42,571 nt of DNA, taken from IMG/VR virus record IMGVR_UViG_3300035703_000164, positions 1 to 42,571 of that record; one strand, 5' to 3'. The notes under the pieces are model-generated. The model was given only the letters and a program-made list of their open reading frames with translations. It did no database searches and was not told where the DNA came from. This document shows positions 3,473 through 22,490 of the stretch, one piece after another. Numbering within the stretch: the first letter of the stretch is position 1; each line of letters opens with the position of its first letter. Both the position numbers and the translations under genes were made by a program. This DNA comes from a virus.

Positions 3473-3954
3473 TACTGGTCCGCGAAGGTCGGGGCCGTAG
3501 TGGAAACAACCGTGCCATAGACGGTCCAGAGCGTGCCGTCGCAAATCATGCGAATGCGCGTTCCGCCCTGCGGCAGATTGATCTGCAACTTCGAGTTGGA
3601 ATTGCCATCGGGGGACACGTTGACCACTTCGTCGCCAGCGGCGTCGGAGTCCGTGTCAAAGTGCGTGACAGCCCCTAGAAAATAGTTGGTATTCGAGCCG
3701 GTCGAGACAATCCAGTCGTGACCGTCAGCAGCGCCAACCTGGGCAATAAACTCATAGTCGAGACCCGCCTTGGCAGCAGGCAGCGTGAACGTGCGATCTG
3801 CCGAGACGTTGGCGACAAGATGAGGCTTGCCGCTATGTTCCGCCAGAACCGTATAGTTCGCATCGCCAACCGCTACCGGGCTTCCGTTCGGGGTGAGCGT
3901 ACCCACCACGACATTCTCGTCCTTCATGGCGTCGTTTTTGCCAGTGATACCCAT
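3472..3954 (-). CDS. Hypothetical head protein, possibly decoration
   Basis: 160 residues, beta-rich, low in Lys and Arg, with no signal peptide. It contains a stretch typical of beta-sandwich capsid accessory proteins (SADRTFTLPAAKAGLDYEF) and a second half rich in Asp and Asn. The ATG has AAGGAGA seven bases upstream. A strong 8-bp hairpin lies just before that ribosome site. Probably a minor head or decoration protein; no family recognised. Confidence 0.75.
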   Translation of the reverse strand: MGITGKNDAMKDENVVVGTLTPNGSPVAVGDANYTVLAEHSGKPHLVANVSADRTFTLPAAKAGLDYEFIAQVGAADGHDWIVSTGSNTNYFLGAVTHFDTDSDAAGDEVVNVSPDGNSNSKLQINLPQGGTRIRMICDGTLWTVYGTVVSTTAPTFADQ

Positions 3955-3973
3955 GTGAGTTCTCCTTTGAAGG

Positions 3974-3997
3974 GAGGCGGGCTGTTACACCCGCCTC
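3974..3997 (-). promoter_or_regulatory. 8-bp hairpin between two head genes
   Basis: GAGGCGGG at 3974-3981 and CCCGCCTC at 3990-3997 form a perfect stem with an 8-nt loop in the late transcript. No U-run follows, so it is not a standard terminator. It sits six bases after the stop of the 133-residue gene and seven before the next AAGGAGA site. It could stabilise the coat message or reduce expression of downstream genes. Confidence 0.55.
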
Positions 3998-4003
3998 ACA
4001 TGG

Positions 4004-4405
4004 TTACTGGTCGTTGTCGACAACGTAGGTCACGATCAGTTCGCCCACGAACGTGTCAGCGCCGGTCGAGACCGTGTAAGTGACCATCGTGTCCACCGTC
4101 TGGAGGATGTTGGTCGTTGCGCCAAGTTCATCGAGGGGGATGAAGCCAACAGCGGCGACGGTCAGAGCCGTAGCGTAGCCGTTGGGATCGTCGGTCGAAC
4201 TGCCGTCCCTGAAACCGACATCGAGAGTGATGCCGGAGTCAGCGGTGACGACATGAATGCCGCCGCCGATAACCGTTGCTCCGGCTGGGATCATGCCCAG
4301 ATCGGTTTCCACAGTCGCCGTAGCGAACGTGATACGCTTGCGCAGGTAGTGAACCTGCTGCGTATAGAACTGGCGAGCCACAGTGCCCGCAGTGTTGGTA
4401 GCCAT
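4004..4405 (-). CDS. Hypothetical capsid accessory protein
   Basis: 133 residues immediately downstream of the coat gene, only 13 bases apart. The N-terminus is basic (QVHYLRKRITFATA) and the remainder is a Thr/Val-rich beta protein ending in VTYVVDNDQ. Its place after the coat gene and its expected co-expression suggest a capsid decoration or cement protein. The family is not recognised. Confidence 0.75.
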   Translation of the reverse strand: MATNTAGTVARQFYTQQVHYLRKRITFATATVETDLGMIPAGATVIGGGIHVVTADSGITLDVGFRDGSSTDDPNGYATALTVAAVGFIPLDELGATTNILQTVDTMVTYTVSTGADTFVGELIVTYVVDNDQ

Positions 4406-5720: not shown

Positions 5721-6677
5721 TCAGGCACCCATGATCTGATCAAACTTGGCTTCGTTGCCCTTTTTCGACATCCAAGCCTTGAATTCCTTGTCCGACATCT
5801 TGGCGAGTGCCTTGGCGTCCAGAGGAGCGATGCCTTCACCCCCCGGCGCGTCAGATAGGCTCTGGTGACGCTGCTGGGCCGCTGCCACGGCTGCAAGGTC
5901 GGTCTTTGGTGCGGTAGGTGCCTGCTGGGCAATCGCCGCCTGTGCGGGTCGCCAGCCGCGCACCGTGGCGAGGTTCTTGATATGCTCCGCAATCGAAATG
6001 CCGCGCTGCGTCACATAGAGGACGTGCTGCTGTTCAATGCGATCCAGCTCAGCTTTGGCCTGCGGGATGGTGTACCCCAAGGCCAGCAATTCTTCGCCCT
6101 GGCTCTTGCGCAAGGCGTTGTAAGCCTCCGGCAGCGTCGGGTCGGTCTGCATTGCAGCGGTGTATTCGGCGTCTACCTTGGAATAGGCTTCCTGATACAT
6201 CGCCGCTTGGCGCTGTGCCTCTGCCTGTTCGGTCGCCGTTCGCTGCTGCGCTTCCTGCATTGCTACAAGCTGCTCAGCCGTCCAGTTGAGCCGAGCCATC
6301 GGATCATCAGGGCCGGGGATGGCGGGCTTTTCGGGCGCTGCCTGCTTGGGCTGCTGAGAGGTCAGAAAGTCGTTCCAACGCTGCTCAAGAATGGCCGCGC
6401 GCTGCTTTGCTTCTCTGGCTTCGGCGCGGGCTTCCTGCACCGCTCGAACGTCAACCATTTTCGGGTCTTCGGCAGGCTTCGCAGCGTCCGGTTCTGCGGG
6501 CTTGTCGTCTGCCCTTGCGGGCTCTTTGTCGTCGCCGGGTTTGGCGAGTACCTGTGCAGGCGGGTCGTCATCCTGTGGGATGTCGTCGCCGTCATCAATG
6601 GGGCTCGAAATCGTACCCAGTTCTTCGTCGGTTGGGGATAGCCCAAGGCTTTCTTCGGTCGGAAGTGTCCGTGCCAT
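5721..6677 (-). CDS. Capsid scaffolding protein
   Basis: 318 residues. The first 75 are acidic, Pro-rich and probably disordered. Residues 75-240 are a long Gln/Ala/Glu-rich helical region with coiled-coil character. The C-terminus is a short basic helix (DKEFKAWMSKKGNEAKFDQ) of the kind that binds coat subunits. This composition and the position between portal and coat are diagnostic of phage scaffolds, which guide procapsid assembly and then leave. Primary sequence is rarely conserved, so the call rests on architecture. Confidence 0.85.
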   Translation of the reverse strand: MARTLPTEESLGLSPTDEELGTISSPIDDGDDIPQDDDPPAQVLAKPGDDKEPARADDKPAEPDAAKPAEDPKMVDVRAVQEARAEAREAKQRAAILEQRWNDFLTSQQPKQAAPEKPAIPGPDDPMARLNWTAEQLVAMQEAQQRTATEQAEAQRQAAMYQEAYSKVDAEYTAAMQTDPTLPEAYNALRKSQGEELLALGYTIPQAKAELDRIEQQHVLYVTQRGISIAEHIKNLATVRGWRPAQAAIAQQAPTAPKTDLAAVAAAQQRHQSLSDAPGGEGIAPLDAKALAKMSDKEFKAWMSKKGNEAKFDQIMGA

Positions 6678-20216: not shown

Positions 20217-20634
20217 TAAGGGCCTCACGTGGTTTGTTGACTGCATCGAAGCAGCCACCACGAAAGGTCTGACGCTTATGGCATTCCGCGACATCGGCAC
20301 CCTGGCAGGCGAAGTGATGAAGCGGGTTACGGTTGAACCGGGAACGGAGCGCAGCACCGTGAAGTGCGCGCATCCGTCCGGCCCACACAACACGGGGGAG
20401 GAGGGGGGCCGTGTTGCGATGAGAATGGGAAAATGGGCCGATGCCGAAACACCGGCCCGAGTTGGTCAGGAGGTCAGTCAGACTAAGGACAAAAGCCGGG
20501 GAGGAACGGCCATGTCCTACCGCAAGCCCACGCTTACGGTCTTGCCCGTGAGCAAGCGTATGAAGGTCGCGCGTCCAACTGGCGTTGCCCCGCGCCATGC
20601 GGCCTTCATTCGTTTGGTCACAGTGAATGGTCAT
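20182..20634 (-). CDS. Doubtful ORF in the left early operon
   Basis: 150 codons open from an ATG that overlaps the 29-residue gene's stop (ATGA), ending two bases before an ATG. Those junctions look like operon structure. Against it, composition is odd (many His, Arg and Cys), the third-position GC is near 60 percent, lower than in the antiparallel frame, and a hairpin with a purine-rich loop crosses it (20388-20416). It may be non-coding or may hide the shorter ORF 20621..20517 (34 residues, GTG start). Confidence 0.35.
   Translation of the reverse strand: MTIHCDQTNEGRMARGNASWTRDLHTLAHGQDRKRGLAVGHGRSSPAFVLSLTDLLTNSGRCFGIGPFSHSHRNTAPLLPRVVWAGRMRALHGAALRSRFNRNPLHHFACQGADVAECHKRQTFRGGCFDAVNKPREALNAVPEKQAFGT
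20388..20416. other. 8-bp hairpin with 13-nt purine loop
   Basis: CAACACGG at 20388-20395 and CCGTGTTG at 20409-20416 form a perfect stem around a G/A-only loop on the + strand. No U-run follows on either strand. It lies in the disputed stretch 20217-20630 of the left operon and could be an RNA attenuation or antitermination site. Confidence 0.45.
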
Positions 20635-20927: not shown

Positions 20928-21008
20928 TCAGATGCACCCCCACGCAATAACCAGACCAATGGCAATGAGGGTGCCAAGGATGGGGGATAGGCGTTCGATG
21001 TGGGTCAT
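20928..21008 (-). CDS. 26-residue membrane peptide
   Basis: ATG at 21008 overlaps the Cro-like stop as ATGA; the stop is followed after one base by the next ATG. One membrane helix (LSPILGTLIAIGLVIAWGCI). With the 29-residue peptide it makes two single-helix peptides in the first four early genes. Function unknown. Confidence 0.5.
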   Translation of the reverse strand: MTHIERLSPILGTLIAIGLVIAWGCI

Positions 21009-21241
21009 GCTGCGGTCTCCGGCATCTGCATACGGAACACATCAGGGCGAAGCTCATGGCGAGGAACGCCCGACACCGCTTCCACATCAGCCGCGCGGAC
21101 TGCTGGCACTTGCACCCATTGGTGCACGGCCTGCCGCGTAACGGGACGCTTCGGATTGATGGCGTTGAGTTTATCCGCCAACCCAGCGGCACCGCCGCAA
21201 AGGTCTTTGGCTCTCTGGAGGGGTGTTGGTGCTTTGCTCAT
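21005..21241 (-). CDS. Cro/YdaS-like HTH repressor
   Basis: 78 residues from the ATG at 21241. The core LQRAKDLCGGAAGLADKLNAINPKRPVTRQAVHQWVQ with PAVRAADVEAVSGVPRHELRPDVF is the YdaS/Cro arrangement seen opposite CI in many lambdoid phages of Proteobacteria. First gene of the left operon. Only AGG with one spacer base precedes the ATG, so translation may be weak or leaderless. It likely binds the same operators as CI to start lytic growth. Confidence 0.85.
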   Translation of the reverse strand: MSKAPTPLQRAKDLCGGAAGLADKLNAINPKRPVTRQAVHQWVQVPAVRAADVEAVSGVPRHELRPDVFRMQMPETAA

Positions 21242-21249
21242 ACCTGCAT

Positions 21250-21266
21250 TGAAAGCATATCTTGCA
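21250..21266. promoter_or_regulatory. CI operator O1
   Basis: TGAAAG-CATAT-CTTGCA matches the form TGAAAG-N5-CTTTCA with one mismatch. It overlaps the transcription start of the predicted leftward promoter. Related sites occur at 21273, 22393 and 22438. Confidence 0.6.
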
Positions 21267-21294
21267 ATGTAAGGCAAGCGTCTCTTTCGATGAA
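21266..21294 (-). promoter_or_regulatory. Leftward early promoter (cro operon)
   Basis: On the - strand TTCATC (21294..21289), a 17-bp spacer, TACATT (21271..21266). The spacer is occupied by operator O2 and the start lies in O1, so repressor binding would block RNA polymerase. Confidence 0.45.
21273..21289. promoter_or_regulatory. CI operator O2
   Basis: GGCAAG-CGTCT-CTTTCG, a weaker match, starts 23 bp from O1, the spacing typical of cooperating lambda-type repressors. Its centre lies about 44 bp upstream of the predicted cI start, close to the activating position of OR2 in lambda. Confidence 0.5.
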
Positions 21295-21324: not shown

Positions 21325-22008
21325 ATGGTAAGTGAAAGCGACATTGGCGGACGGATTCGGGCGGTCAGGAAGGCGCGCGGCATGACGCAGGAAGCGTTTG
21401 CGGCGAAGCTCGGCACCACCACGCGCGGCGCTGTTGGCAACTGGGAGCTGGGGAAAGGGATAAAGACCGACAACCTGGTGGCGATTGCCGATGTGTTTTC
21501 GGTCTCGTTTGAATGGCTGGCAAACGGTCGCGGCGGTATGGAAATCGGCAACCAGTCGGATTTGAATGAAACTGCGAATGCGATTGTTGGCGACAAACTG
21601 CCAGCGCGGGCTAATACTATTCCTTTGTACGGGCACGCCGTTGGAGGGGAGGACGGTGAATTCGTCCTTAACGGTCAAGAATTGGACAACATTACTGCAC
21701 CGCCCGGATTATCGGGCTCAAAAGGCGCATATGCTGTCACGGTTGCGGGGACTTCGATGGAACCCCGCTATGAGGACGGCGAAACTGTCTATGTAGACCC
21801 GAACAAGCGGGTCGTGAAAAACAACTATGTGGTGGCCCAGGTTCAGCACTCAGAGTCAGGGCCGATTTTCGCCTACGTGAAACGCTTCGTCAGCCACAAT
21901 TCCAAAGAACTAGTCCTTGAGCAGTTCAACCCGCCAAAGTTGCTGCGCTTTCCCCATGAGTGCGTCGTTTCGGTGCACTACATCGTTATGGGCGGTCGCG
22001 TATTCTAA
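21325..22008 (+). CDS. CI-like repressor (HTH plus S24 peptidase domain)
   Basis: 227 residues from the ATG at 21325. Residues 8-45 are an XRE HTH (IRAVRKARGMTQEAFAAKLG, then GAVGNWELGKG). The C-terminal S24 domain has GTSMEP with Ser144 and YVKRF with Lys186, the catalytic pair. The usual Ala-Gly cleavage site is not obvious; HAVGG at about 104-108 is the nearest. A -10-like TATGTT ends six bases before the ATG and there is no ribosome site, so the message is probably leaderless, as for lambda cI from PRM. Maintains lysogeny. Confidence 0.9.
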   Translation: MVSESDIGGRIRAVRKARGMTQEAFAAKLGTTTRGAVGNWELGKGIKTDNLVAIADVFSVSFEWLANGRGGMEIGNQSDLNETANAIVGDKLPARANTIPLYGHAVGGEDGEFVLNGQELDNITAPPGLSGSKGAYAVTVAGTSMEPRYEDGETVYVDPNKRVVKNNYVVAQVQHSESGPIFAYVKRFVSHNSKELVLEQFNPPKLLRFPHECVVSVHYIVMGGRVF

Positions 22009-22355
22009 CTCTTACTACCCTAGTTGACTGTTGGTGAGTTCCTGAGCAATAGGCAATAGGAGTCCAGCCCCCGTGCTTTTCAGCATCCGGAGTTGGACCC
22101 CTAGCCTGAGCGAATGTTGACTGCCGGAGCCGTCCCCTCGCAAAAGGCCCGCTGGTCGATCTTAGCGCCAGCAGTCGTGCGTTACTTCACGGGGCACTAA
22201 GAACCCCGGCGGACGCCCCTTCGCACTTTAGGAGTGGGGCTTGAATATGTCCGCGCCCGGTGGTATTCAGATACCGCAATGCCTGCGGTGGGTCGCCACC
22301 GTCTAATCAACCTTCCGACCCGTCAATGAAGCCCCGCCTCACGAGCGGGGTTTTT
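22009..22355 (+). ncRNA. Highly structured cI 3' region, possible regulatory RNA
   Basis: No ORF of note. Nested helices: GCGAA/TTCGC (22110-22114/22220-22224), CTGCCGG/CCGGCGG with one G-U pair (22121-22127/22206-22212), CCCC/GGGG (22134-22137/22191-22194), GCTGG-CG/CG-CCAGC (22151-22158/22166-22172). A second domain has CGGTGG/CCACCG (22258-22263/22296-22301) enclosing ACCGCA/TGCGGT. GGGGCTT at 22236 can pair with AAGCCCC at 22329, which would disrupt the terminator. Also GTCCA/TGGAC (22062-22098) and a tandem CAATAGG pair (22047-22060). Probably a stable RNA from the cI transcript or a weak promoter with TTGACT at 22024. Confidence 0.5.
22332..22355 (+). terminator. Rho-independent terminator after cI
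   Basis: CCCCGC, a 7-nt loop, GCGGGG and TTTTT. The left arm is also complementary to GGGGCTT at 22236-22242 (with two extra bases), so an alternative RNA fold can prevent the terminator from forming. Confidence 0.85.
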
Positions 22356-22392
22356 CATTTCCAGACCATCCCTAAACTGATTTGCGTCAGAT

Positions 22393-22409
22393 TGAAAGCG
22401 CGGCTTTCA
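22393..22409. promoter_or_regulatory. CI operator, right operon, upstream site
   Basis: TGAAAGCGCGGCTTTCA is a perfect 17-bp palindrome (7-bp arms, GCG centre). It ends just before the TTGTGC -35 box of the right promoter. Confidence 0.65.
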
Positions 22410-22411
22410 TT

Positions 22412-22441
22412 TTGTGCTTGCAATCCGCTTTCCGGTATGAA
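22412..22441 (+). promoter_or_regulatory. Right early promoter
   Basis: TTGTGC at 22412-22417, an 18-bp spacer and TATGAA at 22436-22441. Lies between two TGAAAG-N5-CTTTCA sites, the second of which overlaps the -10 box. Starts transcription about 40 bp before the first right-operon gene. Confidence 0.5.
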
Positions 22442-22454
22442 AGGGTAGCTTTCA
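22438..22454. promoter_or_regulatory. CI operator, right operon, site on the -10 box
   Basis: TGAAAG-GGTAG-CTTTCA, perfect outer arms. The whole block is enclosed by TGCGTC (22383-22388) and GACGCA (22455-22460), making an interrupted inverted repeat of 78 bp. Confidence 0.65.
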
Positions 22455-22490
22455 GACGCAGCGAACAGCGCTGCACAACGGGAGATCGAA

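What the first reader, a model, noticed from the sequence alone, without database searches (positions are those of the whole stretch)
22009..22355. Two-domain structured RNA with terminator-antiterminator logic downstream of cI
A 340-nt stretch without a gene holds four nested helices (5, 7, 4 and 7 bp) in 22110-22224, and a second set in 22236-22335: GGGGCTT/AAGCCCC closing CGGTGG/CCACCG and ACCGCA/TGCGGT. The AAGCCCC arm overlaps the left arm of the intrinsic terminator, so the two folds are exclusive. CGGTGG occurs twice (22258, 22286) and GGTAT/ATACC (22262-22275) adds another option. This looks like a switchable RNA or a repressor 3'UTR sRNA. I do not recognise it as 6S, tmRNA or a known riboswitch. 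It would be expressed in the lysogen.
Basis: partly seen in the sequence, partly recalled or inferred. Interest (0 to 1): 0.85.

Follow-up and report, generated by a model that had tools for sequence, protein, structure and literature searches.

The report
New twin-tag structured phage RNA family
Next to a virus repressor gene lies one copy of a large, previously unlisted RNA that many unrelated bacterial viruses carry; it holds the same short variable "tag" twice, which suggests that the RNA finds a partner by base pairing, although that partner and the job it does are still unknown.

Summary
The stretch after cI does hold a real structured RNA, but not the one described. The strongest hairpin (22046-22111) was missed, the four nested helices at 22110-22224 fold no better than shuffled sequence, and the RNA lies on the opposite (minus) strand. 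No blastn or Rfam search finds it. A covariance model led to one distant relative, and motif scans from there gave about 80 member loci with 51 distinct tags: phage contigs, Paracoccus phage Shpa, an Agrobacterium plasmid and bacterial genomes. On 26 aligned members, 49 base pairs hold in 91% of cells against 76% shuffled and at most 52% when slid; 31 pairs show two-sided changes. Consensus folding energy is -41.5 kcal/mol on the minus strand and -20.3 on the plus. Each RNA carries an 8-nt tag plus a triplet twice, about 90 nt apart: the copies match at 7.4 of 8 positions within an RNA and 3.6 between RNAs. The tag has no partner inside the RNA, nor detectably in the flanks. In most phages the RNA lies between operon genes, one tag just before the next start codon; here and in one other phage it lies tail-to-tail with a repressor gene. 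Family and strand are well supported; the mechanism is inferred.

The parts
22023..22302 (-). Conserved structured RNA (5' end near 22302, 3' end near 22023-22031), here called twin-tag RNA
   Evidence: 26-member alignment A6 and pair counts; strand by folding. True transcript ends are not known.
22023..22030 (-). Tag copy R1' (CAGTCAAC), after the conserved TCACCA
   Evidence: identical in window to R2'; 7.4 of 8 matches within RNAs, 3.6 between RNAs
22116..22123 (-). Tag copy R2' (CAGTCAAC), after the conserved GGCTCCG (window: GGCTCCGG)
22033..22040 (-). Unit 1 constant part: AACTCACC, with variable triplet AAC before TCACC
   Evidence: triplet concordant with unit 2 (2.65 of 3 within RNAs, 1.17 between)
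22125..22134 (-). Unit 2 constant part: GACGGCTCCG, with variable triplet GAC before GGCTCCG
22046..22111 (-). Hairpin P2 between the two tags (arms 22103-22111/22046-22054, 22098-22100/22057-22059, 22088-22092/22068-22072)
   Evidence: helices 8-11; z -4.9 plus / -4.5 minus
22149..22174 (-). Hairpin P3 (arms 22164-22174 / 22149-22159)
   Evidence: helix 6: all 8 pairs with two-sided changes
22189..22209 (-). Hairpin P4 (arms 22203-22209 / 22189-22195)
   Evidence: helix 5: 6 of 7 pairs with two-sided changes
22211..22253 (-). Stem P5 (22250-22253/22211-22214) with inner P6 (22236-22239/22216-22219)
   Evidence: helices 3 and 4
22145..22258 (-). Long-range helix P8 (22255-22258 / 22145-22148) closing the P3-P4-P5 junction
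   Evidence: helix 2, 97% of cells paired, mostly invariant
22260..22299 (-).
   Evidence: helix 1: 3 of 4 pairs with two-sided changes
22331..22355 (+). Intrinsic terminator, most likely that of the cI transcript; outside the conserved RNA
   Evidence: similar terminators elsewhere
21325..22008 (+). cI-like repressor (HTH_3 + Peptidase_S24), tail-to-tail with the RNA
22393..22457 (.). Operator-like palindromes (GAAAGC..GCTTTC) before the early operon
   Evidence: same kind of element after cI in L002, L006, L019, L026
22491..22715 (+). First gene of the rightward early operon, divergent from the RNA
   Evidence: no Pfam family

Best explanation
The stretch carries one member of an RNA family that is not in Rfam 15: about 280 nt, encoded on the minus strand, with about ten conserved helices and a twin tag (8 variable nt plus a variable triplet, repeated about 90 nt apart in the unpaired segments that flank hairpin P2). 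SHOWN: family, strand, helices, the twin-tag rule, presence in many phages and in some bacterial genomes and a plasmid, usually between operon genes on the coding strand. INFERRED mechanism: the rigid RNA displays two copies of one recognition sequence that pair with the same external nucleic acid. Because copy R1' lies just before (sometimes over) the ribosome-binding site of the next gene in most phages, partner binding could both capture the RNA and mask or expose that site. In this window the RNA is detached from such an operon and would be transcribed from the early-operator side towards the 3' end of cI. My confidence: new family and minus strand 0.93; twin tags acting by pairing with one shared external partner 0.4; control of the downstream gene 0.2. 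The figure in the confidence field is for the statement as a whole.
For: Covariation on 26 members: 91.3% of cells paired (shuffles 75.8%; slides 38-52%), 184 cells with two-sided changes (shuffles 55), 0/500 shuffles reach any measure. Strand: consensus energy -41.5 against -20.3 kcal/mol; minus strand more stable in 43/51 members and in 46/51 for P2, GU pairs 135/1080 against 51/974; z lower on minus in 42/50. Twin tags: a search pattern that did not include the tag gave 56 loci with 6-8 of 8 matches against 16 with 0-3; over 51 distinct tags 7.41 matches within against 3.64 between RNAs, triplet 2.65 against 1.17 of 3, and R1/R2 differences away from the outermost tag position are almost all C/T or A/G, which G.U pairing tolerates. 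Members independent of the scans: L215, nine genome loci, A. pusense plasmid pC and phage Shpa. Start codon soon after R1' in 45/51, median 37 nt.
Against: No partner found: tags have no complement in the RNA better than chance, no enrichment of the tag or its complement in flanks (14 8-mers against 14.5 expected), and no outstanding site in the whole window or in Shpa. For this one sequence, sub-domain 22023-22180 alone has the better z on the plus strand (-5.3 against -2.4). The plain energy difference is partly reproduced by shuffles (mean 8.8 kcal/mol), so the strand rests mainly on the alignment and on z. No minus-strand promoter is evident in the window, and no minus-strand gene follows R1' here.
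Confidence: 0.4

Rival explanations
1. A mobile or homing RNA element whose internal tag R2' is a guide identical to the sequence at its 3' border (R1'), so that the element recognises or marks its own insertion site, in the way bridge RNAs or omega RNAs recognise DNA.
For: R1' lies at the border of conservation, directly after the constant TCACCA; R2' is inside and must match it; the RNA sits in many different gene gaps; relatives of the window's cI lack it at the same place.
Against: No recombinase or nuclease gene recurs beside it in the neighbour survey (no HMM test of all neighbours); no target duplication or extra tag copy in flanks; no true empty site among the loci compared; the triplet of unit 1 lies inside the conserved region.
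Confidence: 0.2
2. A cis-acting leader that controls only the next gene by masking its ribosome-binding site.
For: Start codon 2-60 nt after R1' in many members, and in several the tag contains the Shine-Dalgarno-like bases.
Against: Downstream genes are unrelated (terminase, zinc-ribbon-like proteins, HTH proteins and others); window and L251 have no gene there; a pure cis leader gives no reason for the second tag copy, and no internal partner exists.
Confidence: 0.15
3. In this phage the minus-strand RNA works mainly as an antisense or convergent transcript against the 3' end of cI and so tunes the lysis-lysogeny choice.
For: Tail-to-tail with cI here and with a repressor-like HTH gene in L251; divergent from the early operator.
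Against: Most members are nowhere near a repressor; no minus-strand promoter recognised.
Confidence: 0.12
4. The first reader's plus-strand repressor 3'UTR with terminator-antiterminator switching.
For: cI would be transcribed into it and the terminator is real; plus-strand sub-domain z -5.3.
Against: Consensus folding, GU content and z favour minus; the competing helices are not conserved; relatives are not behind repressors.
Confidence: 0.03

Closest known systems
C4 antisense RNA of phages P1/P7 (Rfam RF01695) and its c4-a1b1 target
   Same: Phage RNA inside an operon, recognition by short variable segments on either side of a hairpin, a matching segment near the next start codon (C4 details from general knowledge; listed as a phage RNA in PMC2864571)
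   Different: No Rfam match; here the two segments are copies of each other, not two different ones, the RNA is several times longer, and no complementary target was found
Phage P4 CI RNA with seqA/seqB/seqC
   Same: Two identical segments in one phage leader that bind one partner (general knowledge)
   Different: In P4 the partner seqB lies between the two copies; here nothing between the copies or elsewhere in the RNA is complementary
GOLLD and ROOL large ornate RNAs (PMC12286853, abstract seen)
   Same: Large structured RNAs, some of them phage-borne, with unknown function
   Different: No Rfam match; smaller; no twin tag described as far as I know
IS110 bridge RNA and IscB/TnpB omega or re-RNA
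   Same: Structured RNA with variable guide segments
   Different: No such enzyme gene seen beside it; the two guides are identical to each other; HEARO (the IscB RNA) does not match in Rfam

Membership tests
C4 antisense RNA (RF01695) | Match to the Rfam covariance model | tested here: not met
   No match at gathering score in window or ten relatives nor at E up to 10 in window or E up to 2 in L328 and L309
C4 antisense RNA (RF01695) | Segments complementary to a nearby mRNA start region | tested here: not met
   No excess of tag or complement in flanks; no own-genome site above background
P4 CI RNA type | A segment complementary to both repeated copies within the transcript | tested here: not met
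   Own-against-other rank 0.45-0.55 in all regions
GOLLD / ROOL / HEARO / other Rfam 15 families | Match to the covariance model | tested here: not met
tRNA / tmRNA | ARAGORN or Rfam match | tested here: not met
IS110 bridge RNA / omega RNA | Cognate recombinase or nuclease gene adjacent | tested here: inconclusive
   None recognised in the ORF survey of 23 loci, but neighbours were not all scanned with HMMs
Structured RNA family (general) | Helices kept through compensatory changes in homologues | tested here: met
   31 of 49 pairs with two-sided changes, 0/500 shuffles
Repressor 3'UTR sRNA / switch | RNA on the repressor strand with conserved alternative helices | tested here: not met
Twin-tag RNA (this report) | Tag repeated twice, variable between RNAs and equal within each | tested here: met
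   window tags 8/8 identical; family rule

The most novel reading that the evidence does not exclude
The twin tags are guide sequences of an RNA-guided mobile or addressing system of phages and their satellites: one rigid RNA scaffold with a freely reprogrammable 8+3-nt address displayed twice, able to join or mark two copies of the same target.
Probability: 0.15. Interest if true: 0.95.

Novelty: categorically new. Interest (0 to 1): 0.82.

Why it matters
A widespread phage RNA of this size and conservation that is absent from Rfam and from the open papers searched is a notable gap. Its twin-tag rule is unusual: an exact, reprogrammable sequence shown twice by a fixed scaffold is what an addressing device would look like. 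The tags make the partner question directly testable, because any partner must change with the tag from phage to phage.

Tried and rejected
blastn and nhmmer with the window sequence found only its terminator. A 16-mer pattern gave chance hits. Two of the three first CM hits (L216, L217) were rejected as chance: they lie in coding DNA and lack the motifs. I first took the plus strand to be the RNA, read terminators and -10 boxes into it and built arms on it; the strand test over 51 members reversed that, and the strict terminator/-10 scan found only 6 and 5 of 51. Intramolecular partners for the tag, on both strands with the proper wobble rule: none. Targets in flanks or own genome: none; the only exact 8-mer complement in the window (near 20236, about 25 nt before a start codon) is what chance would give. 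Empty-site comparison among member loci: none usable. Group I intron, tmRNA, HEARO and C4 were considered; no Rfam match. Open-access papers gave no description of it; subscription papers and preprints were not searched.

Full report
Check of the finding. The window is an IMG/VR virus record of 42,571 bases. Between the cI-like repressor (21325-22008, HTH_3 + Peptidase_S24) and the first early gene (22491) there is no convincing gene. The stretch matches no Rfam family and folds better than shuffles on both strands. Its best local structure is a hairpin at 22046-22111 (z -4.9 plus, -4.5 minus), not the nested set 22110-22224 (z -0.3). The intrinsic terminator at about 22331-22355 is sound and most likely ends the cI transcript before the operator-like repeats and early promoter region at 22390-22460.

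The element is an addition to this phage. The nearest cI relative (L002, 62% identical) and a phage with similar gene order (G042, terminase 61%, cI 47%) have only some 40-80 nt between cI and the operator region. In L019 the same slot holds a small ORF instead.

Finding relatives. blastn and nhmmer found only the terminator. A covariance model of 22023-22180 searched over 297 genomes gave one real relative, L215 (29.3 bits), which aligns over the whole element. Motif scans of IMG/VR built on that alignment gave further members, as did a second model in 385 alphaproteobacterial and 398 Pseudomonadota genomes (5 and 4 hits, lower bounds because only nine candidates per genome were scored). blastn from relatives found Agrobacterium pusense plasmid pC (E 1e-17) and Paracoccus phage Shpa (E 1e-5). 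In all, 78 member loci with 51 distinct tags were analysed.

Twin tags. The relaxed pattern fixed TGGTGA, GAGC and CGGAGCC but not the bases before them. In the loci returned, the 8 bases before the two anchors match at 6-8 of 8 positions in 56 loci and at 0-3 in 16, with a single locus at 5. Over 51 distinct tags the mean is 7.41 of 8 within an RNA against 3.64 between RNAs; a triplet after each anchor agrees at 2.65 of 3 against 1.17. Where the copies differ, away from the outermost position, it is almost always C against T or A against G, which a G.U-tolerant partner would accept. In the window both tags read GTTGACTG on the plus strand (22023-22030, 22116-22123).

Strand. Folding of 51 members favours the minus strand (43/51; P2 46/51; GU pairs 135/1080 against 51/974); z is lower on minus in 42 of 50. 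On 26 aligned members the consensus energy is -41.5 kcal/mol on minus and -20.3 on plus. Pair counts on the minus-strand alignment: 49 pairs, 91.3% of cells paired against 75.8% in shuffles and 38-52% when slid, 31 pairs and 184 cells with two-sided changes, 0 of 500 shuffles reaching any measure. The structure was derived from the same alignment, so the slide control is generous to it, but the shuffle margin on two-sided changes is large. For the window sequence alone, sub-domain 22023-22180 folds relatively better on the plus strand, so the strand rests on the family, not on this copy.

Anatomy (minus strand, 5' to 3', window coordinates): P7 22299-22296/22263-22260; long-range P8 22258-22255/22148-22145 enclosing P5 (22253-22250/22214-22211) with P6 (22239-22236/22219-22216), P4 (22209-22203/22195-22189) and P3 (22174-22164/22159-22149); unit 2 with GGCTCCG and tag R2' (22123-22116); hairpin P2 (22111-22046); unit 1 with TCACCA and tag R1' (22030-22023).

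Context. In most members the RNA lies between two genes of one operon on the same strand. An ATG/GTG/TTG start of an open frame follows R1' in 45 of 51 members, median 37 nt (the start calls are mechanical), and the genes differ widely: large terminase, zinc-ribbon-like proteins, HTH proteins; upstream lie primase-like, small terminase or excisionase/integrase genes. In the window and in L251 it instead faces the 3' end of a repressor-like gene. In Shpa it overlaps two small annotated ORFs (gp47, gp48).

Mechanism. Two open copies of one variable sequence that change together need a common partner. It is not in the RNA and no flank or own-genome site stands out. The best reading is pairing with an external nucleic acid, possibly linked to the next gene's ribosome-binding site because R1' abuts it; a mobile, guide-like element is the main rival. 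Both are inference. What is shown is the family, its strand, its helices and the twin-tag rule.

Novelty. No Rfam 15 family matches the window or tested relatives and no open-access paper found describes it. I therefore rate it categorically new as an RNA family, with the reservation that subscription literature and preprints were not searched.

Noticed in passing
window 22390-22460; L002, L006, L019, L026 after cI: GAAAGC..GCTTTC palindromes, probably cI operators, recur at the start of the early operon in related phages.
   Followed up: partly
L019 directly after cI (about 3711-4100): The slot between cI and the operator, which holds the RNA in the window, holds a small ORF with a signal-peptide-like start in L019: an accessory-gene slot comparable to lambda rex.
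   Followed up: no
window 20236 (minus-strand transcript, gene 19824-about 20300): The only exact 8-mer copy of the tag outside the RNA lies about 25 nt before a likely start codon; the number of hits is what chance would give.
   Followed up: partly
KR072689 (Paracoccus phage Shpa) 33035-33300: Annotated hypothetical genes gp47 and gp48 overlap the RNA and are probably spurious.
   Followed up: partly
L272, L271, L266, L274, L270: The RNA occurs beside AlpA/excisionase-like and integrase genes, which looks like phage satellites or integrative islands as well as phages.
   Followed up: partly
L233 (NZ_CP076850) about 5992-6255: A member lies on a 32-kb Agrobacterium pusense plasmid next to a large DNA methyltransferase gene.
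   Followed up: no
window 21005-21277 (-): The Cro-like gene divergent from cI matches Pfam YdaS_toxin (PF15943) and weakly P22_Cro.
   Followed up: no
members such as L276, L279, L313, L328, L342: A second subtype with a different 3' half on the plus-strand reading (CCACCGACGTNCCGCA, ACCACCCGGCTCTAG) shares the twin tag; it was not aligned or folded as a group.
   Followed up: no
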